A model generated the notes under the pieces. The model did not search any database and was not told the DNA's origin. It saw only the letters and a program-made list of their open reading frames with translations. Below, piece by piece: positions 35,701 to 38,374 of a stretch of DNA of 64,000 nucleotides. A program made the position numbers and the translations under genes. Numbering within the stretch: the stretch's first letter is position 1; each line of letters begins with the position of its first letter. This DNA comes from Owenia fusiformis. Lineage: Eukaryota; Annelida; Polychaeta; Sabellida; Oweniidae. The stretch covers positions 5,301,375 through 5,365,374 of the forward strand of contig CAIIXF020000005.1 of NCBI GenBank assembly GCA_903813345.2, given 5' to 3'.

Positions 35701-38374
35701 AACACTTTCTAGAGTCCCAAGACCAACTAACTTATTGTAAATGAACTTCTATAAGTGGAATACTTTTTTTTATTTTAGAGGTACCAAAGGTGTTCCACAT
35801 AGACAGGTTTTACTGTAAGTGAAATGTTGTATAGATTTAGCCTACTATTTCCACATATTTTGAAACACTACCATTGAAACTATATGATCCACTGATCATT
35901 TCACCCAAAAGTAACAAAGATTGTGTTATGATATTTTATCAGGCTTGCATTAGTTGAATATTGATTGTTGTCAGAATGTTATCAAGAAGCGTTGGCTCTA
36001 AGTATTCTTTCACGAACTTGTTGAATAATATCATTTTCAATTTTTCAAGGTCTCCAACTGCTCATGTGCAGTCCAAAATCTAGATTGGAGTTCAATTTGG
36101 TTCTTGCCGGTCAAATGGTATTATAAAAGAATGTTTGGAGCCATTCCTCCTTGGGCTTTAATTAAATTTGTGATTTAATAGTGCATTTTATTCATTTGGG
36201 GAGTGTATCAATCCACATCAAGTAATAAGTGTGGGGGGGGGGCAGTTCCAGAGGTTAGCATGCTGTATTGATCAATTTTAAAAAATGAAGATGTAATTCT
36301 TTCAGGGGAGAACTAGAGATTGTTGTGAATATTTACATAACATAATTATTATGTATTATGATTTGGTTGTCCAGTATTGTGGTATTGTGGTATTGTATTG
36401 ACATGCATGCTCCCTTAGTTAACGATGTATAAATATGGCTGAATAAATTATTTTTATATATTTAATCATAATTCAGATTGTTGTTTTATTTTCTTTGATT
36501 AGGTTATGAAAGATTAGTTATTAGGATCAAATGTAAGTTTATTTGAGTTTCATTATAAGTACTATGTAATGTATTTGTAGTCTGTAAAATGTCATTGATT
36601 TGCTTGAACAGTACTATTGTTGTAAACATGTATTATGTGCTACTTTGGTCCCAGAACTTATACTTGATAGGTTTTCTGTACATGCAAGATAGTATTCATG
36701 AAATATCTGCGACATTACTTTACAGTATTTTATCTAAGTCATTGGTTCTTTTGTCTTATATTTTTTGGTTCTTTAATAATCAGAATTTCAATATTGCCAT
36801 ACATGTATATCCTGCATGTTTTGATACATTATTGTTTAATTATGTAAATGTGATCTTCATTAGTTATGTTGTCAAGTGCAATTTTAAAACCAATTCTGCT
36901 TTTTAACAAATCGGAAAGAAAGCACACTGATTTTAATGATTGAAGAACAATATTATTTTATCACCAAGCTGAAACAGGCTTATTGAAATGAAGAATGCTA
37001 AGTAGAAAGGGTGAAAAGAGGAGATGAGCTGTGGCTGATAGAACTTGTATTGGAAAGTAATGTTATGGATCAATGAAAGGGTATCTATTGTTTTGCTAAT
37101 GTATCATATTTTCAACTAATGTAAGTTTTCTTTATTTTCCTGCTGCACTTGACACCTGGGTCTACATCATTGTTGCACATCACCTCCATCCTAATTGTGG
37201 TGAACTAACAACCTTACACCATTCAACTAAAACTTCATCTTACCATACTAACCCCACTCTGGAACACAGCGATGGAGATGCAGACACAACTACAAATGAT
37301 AACGAGTGCATAAAGAAGGCTGCCCACCCTCAGTACCTCTCGCCAGGACTTACCCCGGACCACATGTCTGCGGCACATATGGATATCTCCCCATCGGATA
37401 AATCATCAGATAAACACTCCCCTAACAGTAACACTACACAGTCCCCGGAAAGTAACACTACTCATTCTCCAGAGAGTAACACCTCTCCAGAAAGTAATGT
37501 CACTCGTTCACCGGAAAGTAATGACACTCATTCACCTGAACGCAACCATGCCCATTCTCCACAAAGTACCACACCTGAAAAGGATAATGATAACAGAAAC
37601 AAAGTACATGATAAACATATTGAATCAAAATATTTCAGTCCTTCTCGTGCACCAAGAAATGACAGTGGATATGGCAGCACAAACATATACACAGACACGC
37701 GATCATCAAAATATTCACAGAATGTGTACATATGCGAATCAGACAATCAGACAATGTATGGGTACAAGCCACAAGATGGGGTGTATAAGTCTGGCGGAAC
37801 TGTTGGTCGTATAACATACCTCCCTAGGGTGGATGCTATATATGATGATAGTATGGATTTTCCAGAGCCACCAGATTATGTGGCCTCCGACAATGCTTCC
37901 TTAGATACTGATGCTGAAAGCCAATCATATTCCGAGAATTACCTTGATGAGGTGTACCATCCTCCTCGGCGATCACCCAATACATTTAGCGGCAAGGCAG
38001 AGCTGCGTACTCGTAGCGTAGACAGAGATACCTCATACACATATAAGTTCAACAACATGCGATTTGACCCTCAATGGGGCACCAACAAGAACACAGCATC
38101 ACTTCCAAGGATATGCCATCAGAGAGGGCGCCAGGCTAGATTTGAGACTAAATATTTAACACGAGATATGGACCAGCCCAATTGTGGCTACTCAAGTGGT
38201 AGACCAAGGCATCTAGAAGGGACAGTTGAACTAAAGGGCAAAGAGCTTAGAGATCCCAGTTACAATGAGGGGTTGGAAAAGAAGGCCCCTAAAGCTTGCA
38301 ATGAAGATGTTAACTCTCTAGTTAGGAGGGTAAAATGCATGAGGGTTGCCATGGCACCAGAAACATGTGTTTAA
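11786..38374 (+). CDS. NMNAT: Nicotinamide-nucleotide adenylyltransferase with long C-terminal extension (9 exons)
   Basis: NMNAT joins ATP and NMN (or NaMN) to make NAD(+). Exons: 11786..11864, 17396..17484, 20654..20721, 21366..21523, 30478..30617, 31527..31628, 32746..32804, 33996..34100, 37270..38374. All junctions are GT-AG and in phase, giving 634 residues. The nucleotidyltransferase motif [14 protein letters not shown] is at residues 13-26 with His22. [46 protein letters not shown] and the signature ISATKIRRALRRG (226-238) follow in family order. Exon 4 contains PSKKRKLDE, a likely nuclear localisation signal in the same variable insert where human NMNAT1 has one, so a nuclear NMNAT1-like enzyme is inferred. 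The core ends near residue 267, whereas most animal NMNATs are about 280 residues long. The last exon adds about 367 Ser/Asn/Pro/Thr-rich residues with SPESN repeats and a PPDY motif. A shorter isoform ending elsewhere is possible. Confidence 0.9.
12454..12488 (+). other. Exon-like start, ATGGCGGAC...gtaagt (unproven)
   Basis: An ATG in an ATGGCGGAC context is followed after 35 bases by a strong donor (attg/gtaagt). Spliced to the possible acceptor before tatcagttgcatg near 12584, it would read [15 protein letters not shown] and continue about 35 residues to a stop. I recognise no family. It could be an alternative first exon, a remnant of a mobile element or chance. The ATGGCGG context also resembles a YY1 initiator. 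Confidence 0.15.
12959..13723. repeat. Large fold-back (inverted repeat, ~330-bp arms)
   Basis: The left arm starts at ttaaggtgctatgg (12959) and the right arm ends with its complement ccatagcaccttaa (13723). Long matching blocks lie in between, for example cattgtgatcctggtcatgt on one side and its complement on the other. The arms are about 330 bp around a ~100-bp centre and look over 95% complementary by eye. The two similar short ORFs on opposite strands (12891-13088 and 13594-13827) are the same arm read twice and not genes. It is most likely a non-autonomous fold-back transposon. Confidence 0.85.
13864..14340. repeat. Second fold-back element with nested arms
   Basis: Outer arms are cagctgaataatagtgacct (13864) and its near-complement ending caaaggtcactattaatcagctg (14340). 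Inner arms (about 13940-14060 and 14145-14265) carry ccgtgcaagtattggagtgc and its complement, with tcgatcaagacttgtaaatt paired the same way. Complementarity is lower than in the neighbouring fold-back, so this copy is older or belongs to a different family. Non-coding. Confidence 0.8.
15200..16405. repeat. Mobile-element-like insertion with gggttcg...cgaaccc centre and ~20-bp tandem repeat
   Basis: It begins with gggccgtagggagaggggg followed by a poly-C run at 15240-15249, and ends with aacccccccctgacaaatcc and ctggctacgccactgagc, the kind of end common in invertebrate DNA transposons. From about 15995 to 16370 the unit gcaaatttggcaaaatttaa is repeated some 15-18 times with drift. The open minus-strand frame across these repeats is an artefact of the period. 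Confidence 0.6.
17485..20653 (+). other. NMNAT intron 2
   Basis: AT-rich intron between donor gtagga and acceptor ttccag. It holds three degenerate copies of a ggccattttgaattt-containing repeat (about 17740-18190) and one MITE (19468-19634). No exon was recognised. Confidence 0.7.
19468..19634. repeat. MITE of the ACAGTAAAACCTG family, copy 1
   Basis: An approximately 165-bp element with left end gacctgcaaagtggaacac and right end gttttccacttagacatgttttac, an imperfect inverted pair. It shares its whole interior (cccaagacccactgactta, gaacctctataagtg) with the element at 35648-35817. The layout is typical of Tc1/mariner-derived MITEs; that class is inferred. Confidence 0.7.
24496..24632. repeat. 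43-bp tandem repeat, three copies
   Basis: The unit ctaggttaccttatatggac + ttgatgtgacattttcaggttag repeats three times almost without change and then breaks down at ctaggttaacttcc. It is intronic. Confidence 0.9.
25260..25450. repeat. Low-complexity gggcc/ggcc-rich patch
   Basis: Recurrent gggcct/aaggcc/gggccc words with A/T-rich spacers form many small self-complementary segments (for example aaggccttaaggacc, gggcccacttttgg). Probably decayed repeat DNA. The open minus frame here is not gene-like. Confidence 0.5.
26395..26475 (+). repeat. Left member of an inverted repeat pair flanking 26.4-30.3 kb
   Basis: The block aacactgtggctagtcgatc ... tgcagtcaagcacatgtaatgtttcgtgagtaccc recurs inverted at 30250-30330. 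Both copies keep an open frame reading TLWLVD.CGCS....MFR, so the repeat may derive from an exon. It could be the flank of a composite element or two copies of a small gene fragment in opposite orientation. Confidence 0.7.
27152..27257 (+). pseudogene. Orphan exon-like fragment with half a C2H2 zinc finger
   Basis: Between an acceptor (ttttgtag) and a donor (catg/gtaaag) is an open frame reading [19 protein letters not shown] followed by [16 protein letters not shown]. The CxxC, the hydrophobic spacing and the first His fit a C2H2 zinc finger, and the second His would have to come from the next exon. No partner exon was identified and the phase does not fit NMNAT, so it is not an alternative NMNAT exon. 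Best read as a gene fragment carried by the repeat region or the remnant of a nested gene; function unknown. Confidence 0.35.
27339..29296. repeat. Composite repeat block with ~467-bp units, CT-rich satellite and 19-bp repeat
   Basis: It starts with the palindrome tagactccagat...atctggagtcta and ends with tagatctggagtctgaaatt and a second small palindrome. Inside are three degenerate tandem units of about 467-471 bp; the word gagatatgg(t/c)gtc marks them at 27661, 28128 and 28599. Next comes a pyrimidine-rich tract of tatccttcc-like repeats (about 28810-29140) and five copies of a 19-bp unit ggatgactcggcttattct (29150-29240). The short proline/tyrosine/serine-rich frame at 28974-29156 comes from the microsatellite and is not a gene. 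Confidence 0.75.
29346..29959 (-). CDS. Unrecognised exon-like ORF, C2H2-like N-terminus
   Basis: A minus-strand open frame of about 205 codons lies between a good acceptor (tttattta cag at 29960) and a good donor (ctgag/gtaaga at 29345). It begins [17 protein letters not shown] and continues with an H-x5-H pair, a possible zinc-binding C-x2-C...H...H arrangement. An acidic, polar middle and a hydrophobic stretch ([18 protein letters not shown]) follow. A second donor on the same strand (atcgag/gtaagt at 30210) suggests an upstream exon overlapping the inverted repeat at 30250-30330. I recognise no family. It may be a nested gene inside NMNAT intron 4 on the opposite strand, or part of an uncharacterised mobile element. 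Confidence is for a real exon, not for a function. Confidence 0.4.
30250..30330 (-). repeat. Right member of the inverted repeat pair
   Basis: Inverse complement of 26395-26475, with mismatches and small indels. Read on the minus strand it leads into a donor (aaaatcgag/gtaagt) at 30210, 250 bases before the exon-like ORF at 29959. Confidence 0.7.
31888..32474. repeat. 29-bp minisatellite, about 20 copies
   Basis: The consensus unit is ctctgttgaaatgtgaaaat + gacatgtca, repeated roughly 20 times with point changes (gaaaatgcc, gtggaaatgat) and a few shortened units lacking ctct. It lies in NMNAT intron 6, about 270 bases before exon 7. Confidence 0.95.
34101..37269 (+). other. NMNAT intron 8, before the extension exon
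   Basis: A 3.2-kb AT-rich intron from donor gtaagc to acceptor aacacag. A perfect branch-point word tactaac lies at 37246-37252, 17 bases before the acceptor edge, which supports use of the terminal exon. The intron carries degenerate MITE copies (about 34123-34353 and 35290-35380), one good MITE (35648-35817) and a poly-G run near 36232. The 105-codon frame at 36589-36906 has no family signal and looks like chance in AT-rich DNA. Confidence 0.65.
35648..35817. repeat. MITE of the ACAGTAAAACCTG family, copy 2
   Basis: The left end acagggaaacctgctaagtgg pairs with the right end tccacatagacaggttttactgt. The interior matches the element at 19468-19634 in the same orientation. Looser relatives of the same ends occur near 6480-6560, 31690-31836 and 34123-34353. 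Confidence 0.7.

What the first reader, a model, noticed from the sequence alone, without database searches (positions are those of the whole stretch)
37270..38374. NMNAT with a ~367-residue intrinsically disordered C-terminal extension
The phase-consistent terminal exon more than doubles the enzyme. Typical animal NMNATs stop shortly after the last helix (here [11 protein letters not shown], residue ~260). The added part is rich in Ser, Asn, Pro, Thr, Asp and Tyr and has no recognised fold. An NAD-synthesising enzyme with a long, probably phosphorylatable tail could gain localisation, partner binding or chaperone-like behaviour. A tactaac branch point and a fitting phase support inclusion.
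Basis: partly seen in the sequence, partly recalled or inferred. Interest (0 to 1): 0.72.

Follow-up and report, generated by a model that had tools for sequence, protein, structure and literature searches.

The report
NAD enzyme with long disordered tail
The animal's only detected gene for the NAD-making enzyme NMNAT is followed, in the right reading phase, by a real protein-coding exon that would add a 367-residue floppy tail; it probably gives a second, longer form of the enzyme, but no RNA data were available to prove the join.

Summary
In detail: exon 37270-38374 lies on the NMNAT strand, fits the donor phase and would lengthen a 267-residue enzyme to 634. The frame is real (424 codons; longest chance frame in 30 simulations 272), and an octapeptide array in it keeps its Ser-Pro pairs while their codons drift. 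No Pfam match over cut-off, no PDB match and no convincing second copy in the genome was found.

Indirect evidence favours joining to NMNAT: the gene appears single; CpG depletion of its 3' introns runs through intron 8 up to the exon and is relaxed after it (controls mixed); the acceptor has a distant-branch-point layout found once in the window. Against: by local sequence the acceptor scores below all 54 comparison acceptors, and no transcript or orthologue could be examined.

Best reading: two C-terminal forms from one gene, a short one (an in-frame TAA overlaps the donor) and a long one whose tail carries proline-directed phosphosites, DSGYGS, PPDY and a C-terminal PDZ ligand, ETCV. This resembles Drosophila Nmnat splicing and the vertebrate Nmnat1-Rbp7 fusion in principle. 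The chaperone idea has no support here. Moderate interest; new variant of a known kind.

The parts
11786..34100 (+). NMNAT exons 1-8 (11786-11864, 17396-17484, 20654-20721, 21366-21523, 30478-30617, 31527-31628, 32746-32804, 33996-34100): catalytic core, 266 codons plus 2 nt
   Evidence: Joined in frame; E 7.7e-75 to human NMNAT1 for residues 27-261. Exon ends set by eye from GT/AG, phase and homology.
21490..21507 (+). KKRKLD, candidate nuclear signal in the linker
   Evidence: KKRK aligns with human RKRK; function recalled, not tested
34101..34106 (+). Donor GTAAGC; TAA stop of the short form at 34102-34104 overlaps it
   Evidence: Sequence, ORF end, donor list
36442..36447 (+). AATAAA in intron 8, one of three (35047, 35109, 36442): candidate poly(A) signals of the short form
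   Evidence: Hexamer listing; use not shown
37116..37146 (+). Candidate distant branch site CTAAT (A at -151) and pyrimidine tract
   Evidence: inferred
37126..37269 (+). Stretch without AG up to the acceptor AG at 37268-37269 (AG-to-AG distance 144); TACTAAC at 37246-37252 (A at -19)
   Evidence: 5 of 3303 AG gaps in the window are this long
37270..38374 (+). Tail exon: completes Thr267, adds 367 residues, then TAA
   Evidence: ORF, CDS, repeat constraint
37418..37579 (+). Seven units of a Ser-Pro octapeptide (SPESNTTH-like; one unit has six residues)
37661..37678 (+). DSGYGS, fits the DSGxx[ST] degron pattern
   Evidence: shuffle p 0.035; pattern recalled
37868..37879 (+). PPDY, fits the PPxY pattern
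   Evidence: shuffle p 0.12; pattern recalled
38360..38371 (+). C-terminal ETCV, class I PDZ-ligand pattern
   Evidence: p 0.019; strict E[ST]xV form p 0.0004; pattern recalled
39334..39339 (+). ATTAAA, candidate poly(A) signal of the long form
   Evidence: Hexamer listing; use not shown

Best explanation
One NMNAT1-like gene makes two enzymes with the same catalytic core. If the donor at 34100 is not used, translation stops at the overlapping TAA and gives a complete 267-residue enzyme. If it is spliced to the terminal exon at 37270, through an acceptor of distant-branch-point type that looks regulated, a 634-residue form arises. Its 367-residue tail is disordered and works as a regulatory and anchoring arm: an array of proline-directed phosphosites and a degron-like DSGYGS tune its stability or partners, and PPDY and the C-terminal ETCV bind WW- and PDZ-domain proteins and hold NAD synthesis at a scaffold outside the nucleus. 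Shown: translated exon, phase fit, one gene as far as the search reaches, constraint in the repeats, presence of the motifs. Inferred: the splice, the short form, and every binding, location or turnover function.
For: Phase fit and 634-residue CDS. ORF beyond 30 simulations. Repeat units: 0.79 synonymous against 0.117 non-synonymous differences per site, Ser-Pro never changed. One NMNAT gene: 7 of 7 matches of the core query lie in it. CpG fraction stays low through intron 8 (16 of 469) to the exon (2 of 125 in 36451-37269) and is 11 of 107 right after it. The layout CTAAY, pyrimidine tract, >=120 nt without AG occurs once on both strands of the window and its first AG is this acceptor. No other plausible + strand exon seen by eye in intron 8. 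13 SP/TP sites against 5.8 expected, and ETCV at the C-terminus.
Against: The acceptor scores -5.08, below all 47 EGF_CA acceptors (lowest 0.29) and all 7 other NMNAT acceptors (lowest 5.65), and ranks 115th of 165 AGs in intron 8. No RNA, no orthologue. Motifs are short and 17 patterns were tried. CpG controls are mixed: one clean (L063), one partial (L061), two unsettled; introns 1, 2 and 4 are not depleted. The tail's motif set would also suit the cytoplasmic end of a membrane receptor.
Confidence: 0.55

Rival explanations
1. The ORF is a separate gene (its own start in intron 8, for example ATG at 37364, or the last exon of an undetected gene such as a membrane receptor whose cytoplasmic end it encodes), and NMNAT ends at 34104.
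For: The acceptor is locally weak. NMNAT is complete at 34104: the human match ends six residues earlier. The frame is open 170 nt upstream of the acceptor. Tyr-rich, PPxY and PDZ-ligand content suits receptor ends (resemblance recalled).
Against: CpG stays low up to the exon, with no CpG-rich start region before it. In-frame ATGs at 37364 and 37379 have C at -3. No plausible receptor or membrane-spanning exon was seen by eye among 24 intron-8 ORFs of 36 aa or more; this was not searched against Pfam (one search failed).
Confidence: 0.3
2. The exon joins NMNAT always; there is no short form and the weak acceptor is simply tolerated.
For: The phase fits and the CpG footprint runs to the exon; poly(A)-like hexamers in AT-rich introns are common.
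Against: Weak local acceptor with the long AG-free zone typical of alternative exons; TAA overlapping the donor gives a ready short end.
Confidence: 0.11
3. The ORF is not translated (chance frame or relic).
For: No relative over cut-off in Pfam, none in the PDB, none convincing elsewhere in the genome; codon bias uninformative.
Against: ORF length beyond 30 simulations; synonymous drift with fixed Ser-Pro in the repeats.
Confidence: 0.04

Closest known systems
Drosophila Nmnat C-terminal splice isoforms RA/RB (PMC4674693; passages read)
   Same: One gene, same core, alternative C-terminal ends; in the fly these set nuclear against cytoplasmic location.
   Different: Here a 367-residue disordered end against a plain stop at the donor, rather than a choice of exons. 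The fly's nuclear signal (KKQK) is in the alternative exon; here the KKRK run is in the shared linker. Sequences of the ends were not compared.
Vertebrate Nmnat1-Rbp7 fusion transcript (PMC4664474; abstract and two results sections read)
   Same: NMNAT1 core joined by splicing to a downstream exon set, with a change of location reported there.
   Different: Rbp7 is a separate gene; the tail here has no Pfam match over cut-off and no PDB match.
Mammalian NMNAT2 (PMC3627647 passages; PMC5241118 abstract)
   Same: Works like it at most: membrane placement and MAPK-dependent turnover of an NMNAT.
   Different: NMNAT2 uses a central palmitoylated Cys pair; the linker here has no cysteine and the added part is C-terminal.
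Exons with distant branch points (PMC1431707; passages read)
   Same: AG exclusion zone above 100 nt, with branch-like site and pyrimidine tract far upstream.
   Different: The branch site is not mapped here; a second, perfect TACTAAC lies at the usual distance.

Membership tests
Animal NMNAT (NMNAT1 type) | Sequence relationship over the catalytic core | tested here: met
   E 7.7e-75 to human NMNAT1, human residues 29-256
Animal NMNAT (NMNAT1 type) | Nucleotidyltransferase motifs GxFxPx[TH]xxH and ISxTxxR (motifs recalled) | tested here: met
   [10 protein letters not shown], ISATKIRR
Animal NMNAT (NMNAT1 type) | NMN adenylyltransferase activity | not testable with these tools
   Needs an assay
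NMNAT with alternative C-terminal ends (fly Nmnat type) | Single gene for several forms | tested here: met
   7 of 7 matches at E <= 0.1 lie in this gene; 8 candidates scored, so a missed paralogue is possible
NMNAT with alternative C-terminal ends (fly Nmnat type) | Two transcripts with different ends | not testable with these tools
   No RNA; only overlapping stop, hexamers and acceptor features
Nmnat1-Rbp7 type fusion | Second part is a known folded domain or gene | tested here: not met
   Pfam: two matches below cut-off, E 0.2 and 1.2; PDB: none at E <= 10
NMNAT2 | Palmitoylated Cys pair in the central domain | tested here: not met
   No cysteine in the linker between QWQETAKV and KLLCG (sequence)
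Distant-branch-point exon | AG exclusion zone of 100 nt or more | tested here: met
   144 nt; 3 of 34 control acceptors reach 100, 0 of 63 reach 144
Distant-branch-point exon | Branch point used far upstream | not testable with these tools
   Candidates at -151 and -19; not mapped
PDZ-binding protein | C-terminal [ST]x[VIL] | tested here: met
   ETCV; p 0.019 by shuffle; binding not tested

The most novel reading that the evidence does not exclude
An animal with a single NMNAT gene makes a kinase-tuned, PDZ-anchored NAD synthase: splicing to a distant-branch-point exon places NAD production on a membrane or synaptic scaffold and sets its turnover, doing in one gene what mammals do with NMNAT1, 2 and 3.
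Probability: 0.17. Interest if true: 0.68.

Novelty: new variant of a known kind. Interest (0 to 1): 0.42.

Why it matters
NMNAT level and location decide whether injured axons survive (PMC3627647 and PMC5241118, passages and abstract). An animal that gained compartment or turnover control by adding a long disordered, motif-rich tail to one gene would show a third route beside mammalian gene duplication and fly exon choice, and would give a natural test of whether anchoring NAD synthesis at a scaffold matters.

Tried and rejected
Synonymous codon-usage scoring, trained on 24 GPCR ORFs, did not separate coding from non-coding: tail 0.006, NMNAT core 0.026, null -0.027 with SD 0.020 (630 windows), reverse frames of the tail up to 0.065. 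An earlier version of that script searched one strand only and used wrong exon ends; its training and CDS numbers are not used.

A CpG change-point fit put the step at 37267, the exon start. This largely reflects exons keeping ordinary CpG (core exons 18 of 146; tail 27 of 206), so I rely on the non-coding stretches before and after the exon. Four chaperonin gene ends were fetched as controls, their ends read by eye from ORFs. L063 (last exon ends about 4030): 0.030 in 4001-4500, then 0.09-0.30 with one bin of 0.056; a clean rise, although repeats at 2501-4000 inside the gene already reach 0.09-0.11. L061 (about 4060): 0.024 and 0.042, then 0.099, 0.126, 0.30, but back to 0.05-0.11 after 6500; partial. 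L062: rises after 5000, stop not settled. L064: low to 6000, one bin of 0.15, then low again in what looks like another gene. The footprint is supporting evidence only.

A chaperone role, a folded domain and a paralogue of the tail were considered and not kept: two Pfam matches below cut-off, no PDB match, and one genome match at E 0.23 over query 43-100, which is mostly the repeat array, not followed. An alternative in-phase acceptor at 37126 scores -7.05 and would put a pyrimidine tract in the exon; not favoured. No fold search was run, because 361 of 367 residues of the model have pLDDT under 50. Orthologues were not sought: the collections on offer hold prokaryotes, viruses, phages and plasmids, the metagenome cap was 0, and G000 has no relatives here; the search for related loci was not run. 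Literature: searches listed no paper on such a tail among the rows shown (20 of 1,175, 4 of 4, 8 of 8, 10 of 113, 10 of 529); apart from the papers named, only listings were seen.

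Full report
What is there. The window lies on contig C5 of an unnamed 498-Mb genome that is animal by its gene content. On the + strand it holds an NMNAT gene whose coding exons I place at 11786-11864, 17396-17484, 20654-20721, 21366-21523, 30478-30617, 31527-31628, 32746-32804 and 33996-34100, followed by 37270-38374. The first eight encode an NMNAT1-like enzyme: E 7.7e-75 to human NMNAT1, with [10 protein letters not shown], ISATKIRR and a KKRK run aligned with human RKRK. Exon ends were set by eye from GT/AG signals, phase and homology; no RNA was available.

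Is the last exon real? The frame is open for 424 codons. Order-2 Markov sequences of 64 kb gave longest ORFs of 118-165 codons when trained on the window (15 runs) and 159-272 when trained on the exon itself (15 runs). The exon is GC-rich (0.445 against 0.314 in intron 8). Seven SPESNTTH-like units form a tandem array. Over the first five codons the units differ at 0.79 per synonymous site and 0.117 per non-synonymous site; the Ser-Pro codons differ 32 times synonymously and never otherwise (pairwise counts, not independent). The concentration of change in third positions has permutation p 0.003. On six units and four codons the true frame gives a ratio of 0.20 and the +1 frame 2.3; the +2 frame holds stops. 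So the frame is very probably translated and the Ser-Pro pairs have been kept. Codon bias was uninformative.

Does it belong to NMNAT? For: (1) the phase-2 donor fits the acceptor at 37270. (2) The gene seems single: 7 of 7 matches of a 241-residue NMNAT query at E <= 0.1 lie in it; the tail's only other match has E 0.23. (3) CpG/(CpG+TpG+CpA), a trace of germline methylation, which in most invertebrates concentrates on transcribed genes (PMC11292947, start of the abstract in the listing), is low in introns 3, 5, 6 and 7 (0.014-0.044) and equally low throughout intron 8 (16 of 469), including the last stretch before the exon (2 of 125 in 36451-37269). Right after the exon it is higher: 11 of 107 in 38375-39000, 8 of 68 in 39001-39400, 24 of 155 in 39401-40400. 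Introns 1, 2 and 4 are not depleted (0.134, 0.124, 0.086). Of four control gene ends, one shows a clean rise within about 0.5 kb of the stop, one a partial rise within 1-1.5 kb, and two could not be settled. If NMNAT ended at 34104, its footprint would run on for 3.2 kb and relax just where the extra exon lies; a long 3' UTR could explain part of that. (4) No CpG-rich stretch precedes the exon, and the in-frame ATGs at 37364 and 37379 have C at -3.

The acceptor. By a 24-position matrix from 47 EGF_CA acceptors of this genome it scores -5.08; the 47 range from 0.29 to 13.5 (each left out in turn) and the 7 other NMNAT acceptors from 5.65 to 12.39; among 165 AGs of intron 8 it ranks 115th. That speaks against strong constitutive use. 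But the AG before it is 144 nt away, a gap that 5 of 3303 in the window reach, itself included; two of those five (289 and 367 nt) fall in or beside tandem arrays. Control EGF_CA sites: 0 of 63 reach 144 nt, and 3 of the 34 with a pyrimidine-rich end reach 100, two of these three being near-copies. Upstream sit CTAAT (A at -151) and the tract TTTTCTTTATTTTCCTGCTGC; near the AG sits TACTAAC (A at -19), and 8 of 3300 AGs have a perfect TACTAAC at that range. A scan for CTAAY, then >=18/21 pyrimidines, then >=120 nt without AG finds this place alone on both strands; its thresholds were set after seeing the place. Human exons with AG exclusion zones of 100 nt or more are more often alternatively spliced, and the paper states that all experimental examples of distant branch points are alternative (PMC1431707, passages). 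I read this as a regulated acceptor.

Two ends. The donor AC|GTAAGC overlaps an in-frame TAA (34102-34104), so a message that does not use it ends the enzyme at residue 267, six residues after the end of the human match. Three AATAAA lie in intron 8. This would give a short canonical form and a long form of 634 residues.

What the tail may do. It is 50% N, S, T, P, D and Y, with a net charge of -8, has no Pfam match over cut-off and no PDB match, and folds to a mean pLDDT of 34.6 from its sequence alone, which fits disorder but is weak evidence without an alignment. Against composition shuffles: 13 SP/TP sites (5.8 expected, p 0.0014), DSGxx[ST] p 0.035, PPxY p 0.12, class I PDZ ligand p 0.019 and its strict E[ST]xV form p 0.0004. 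I tried 17 patterns, so only the SP/TP sites (themselves largely the repeat array) and the C-terminus stand out. The patterns and their usual ligands (MAPK/CDK, beta-TrCP, WW, PDZ) are recalled. MAPK signalling speeds turnover of NMNAT2 and of fly NMNAT (PMC5241118, abstract), and membrane attachment shortens NMNAT2 half-life (PMC3627647, passages), so a scaffold-bound, kinase-tuned long form is a coherent hypothesis. It stays a hypothesis.

Comparison. Fly Nmnat makes nuclear and cytoplasmic forms by C-terminal splicing (PMC4674693, passages); vertebrates splice nmnat1 to rbp7, and in zebrafish the fusion is found in nucleus and cytoplasm while Nmnat1 is nuclear (PMC4664474, two sections). 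The case here works alike in principle, but the added part matches no known domain and was not compared with the fly ends. I therefore call it a new variant of a known kind, with the join to NMNAT about 0.65 likely and join plus two forms about 0.55.

Noticed in passing
8971-9279 (-): First exon of a Nop14-like gene (E 3.7e-10, profile 4-44 of 862), divergent from NMNAT; the two may share a promoter region.
   Followed up: no
12956-13726: Long inverted repeats in NMNAT intron 1: arms of 232 nt (98% complementary) and 109 nt (93%), like a foldback element.
   Followed up: no
31880-32474: 29-bp minisatellite, 20.7 copies, 90% matches, in NMNAT intron 6.
   Followed up: no
29345-30010 (-): 222-codon ORF on the opposite strand inside NMNAT intron 4, without a Pfam match at E <= 0.01; looks like a mobile-element or nested gene.
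   Followed up: no
56177-58849 (-): 891-codon ORF with a reverse transcriptase domain (PF00078, E 1.1e-23).
   Followed up: no
51269-52659 and 62085-63479 (-): Two pairs of closely similar ORFs (242/245 and 181/181 codons) about 10.8 kb apart, with only weak Pfam matches for the longer ones: a recent segmental duplication.
   Followed up: no
L061, turned, 1983-2315 and 2335-2469: A chaperonin exon (VKRVLESKSVVPGGGAVEAALSIYLENFATSLVS) appears twice in tandem, as if the exon had been duplicated.
   Followed up: no
38425-38857: Tandem repeats of 19, 34 and 103 bp just after the tail's stop codon, in the presumed 3' UTR.
   Followed up: no
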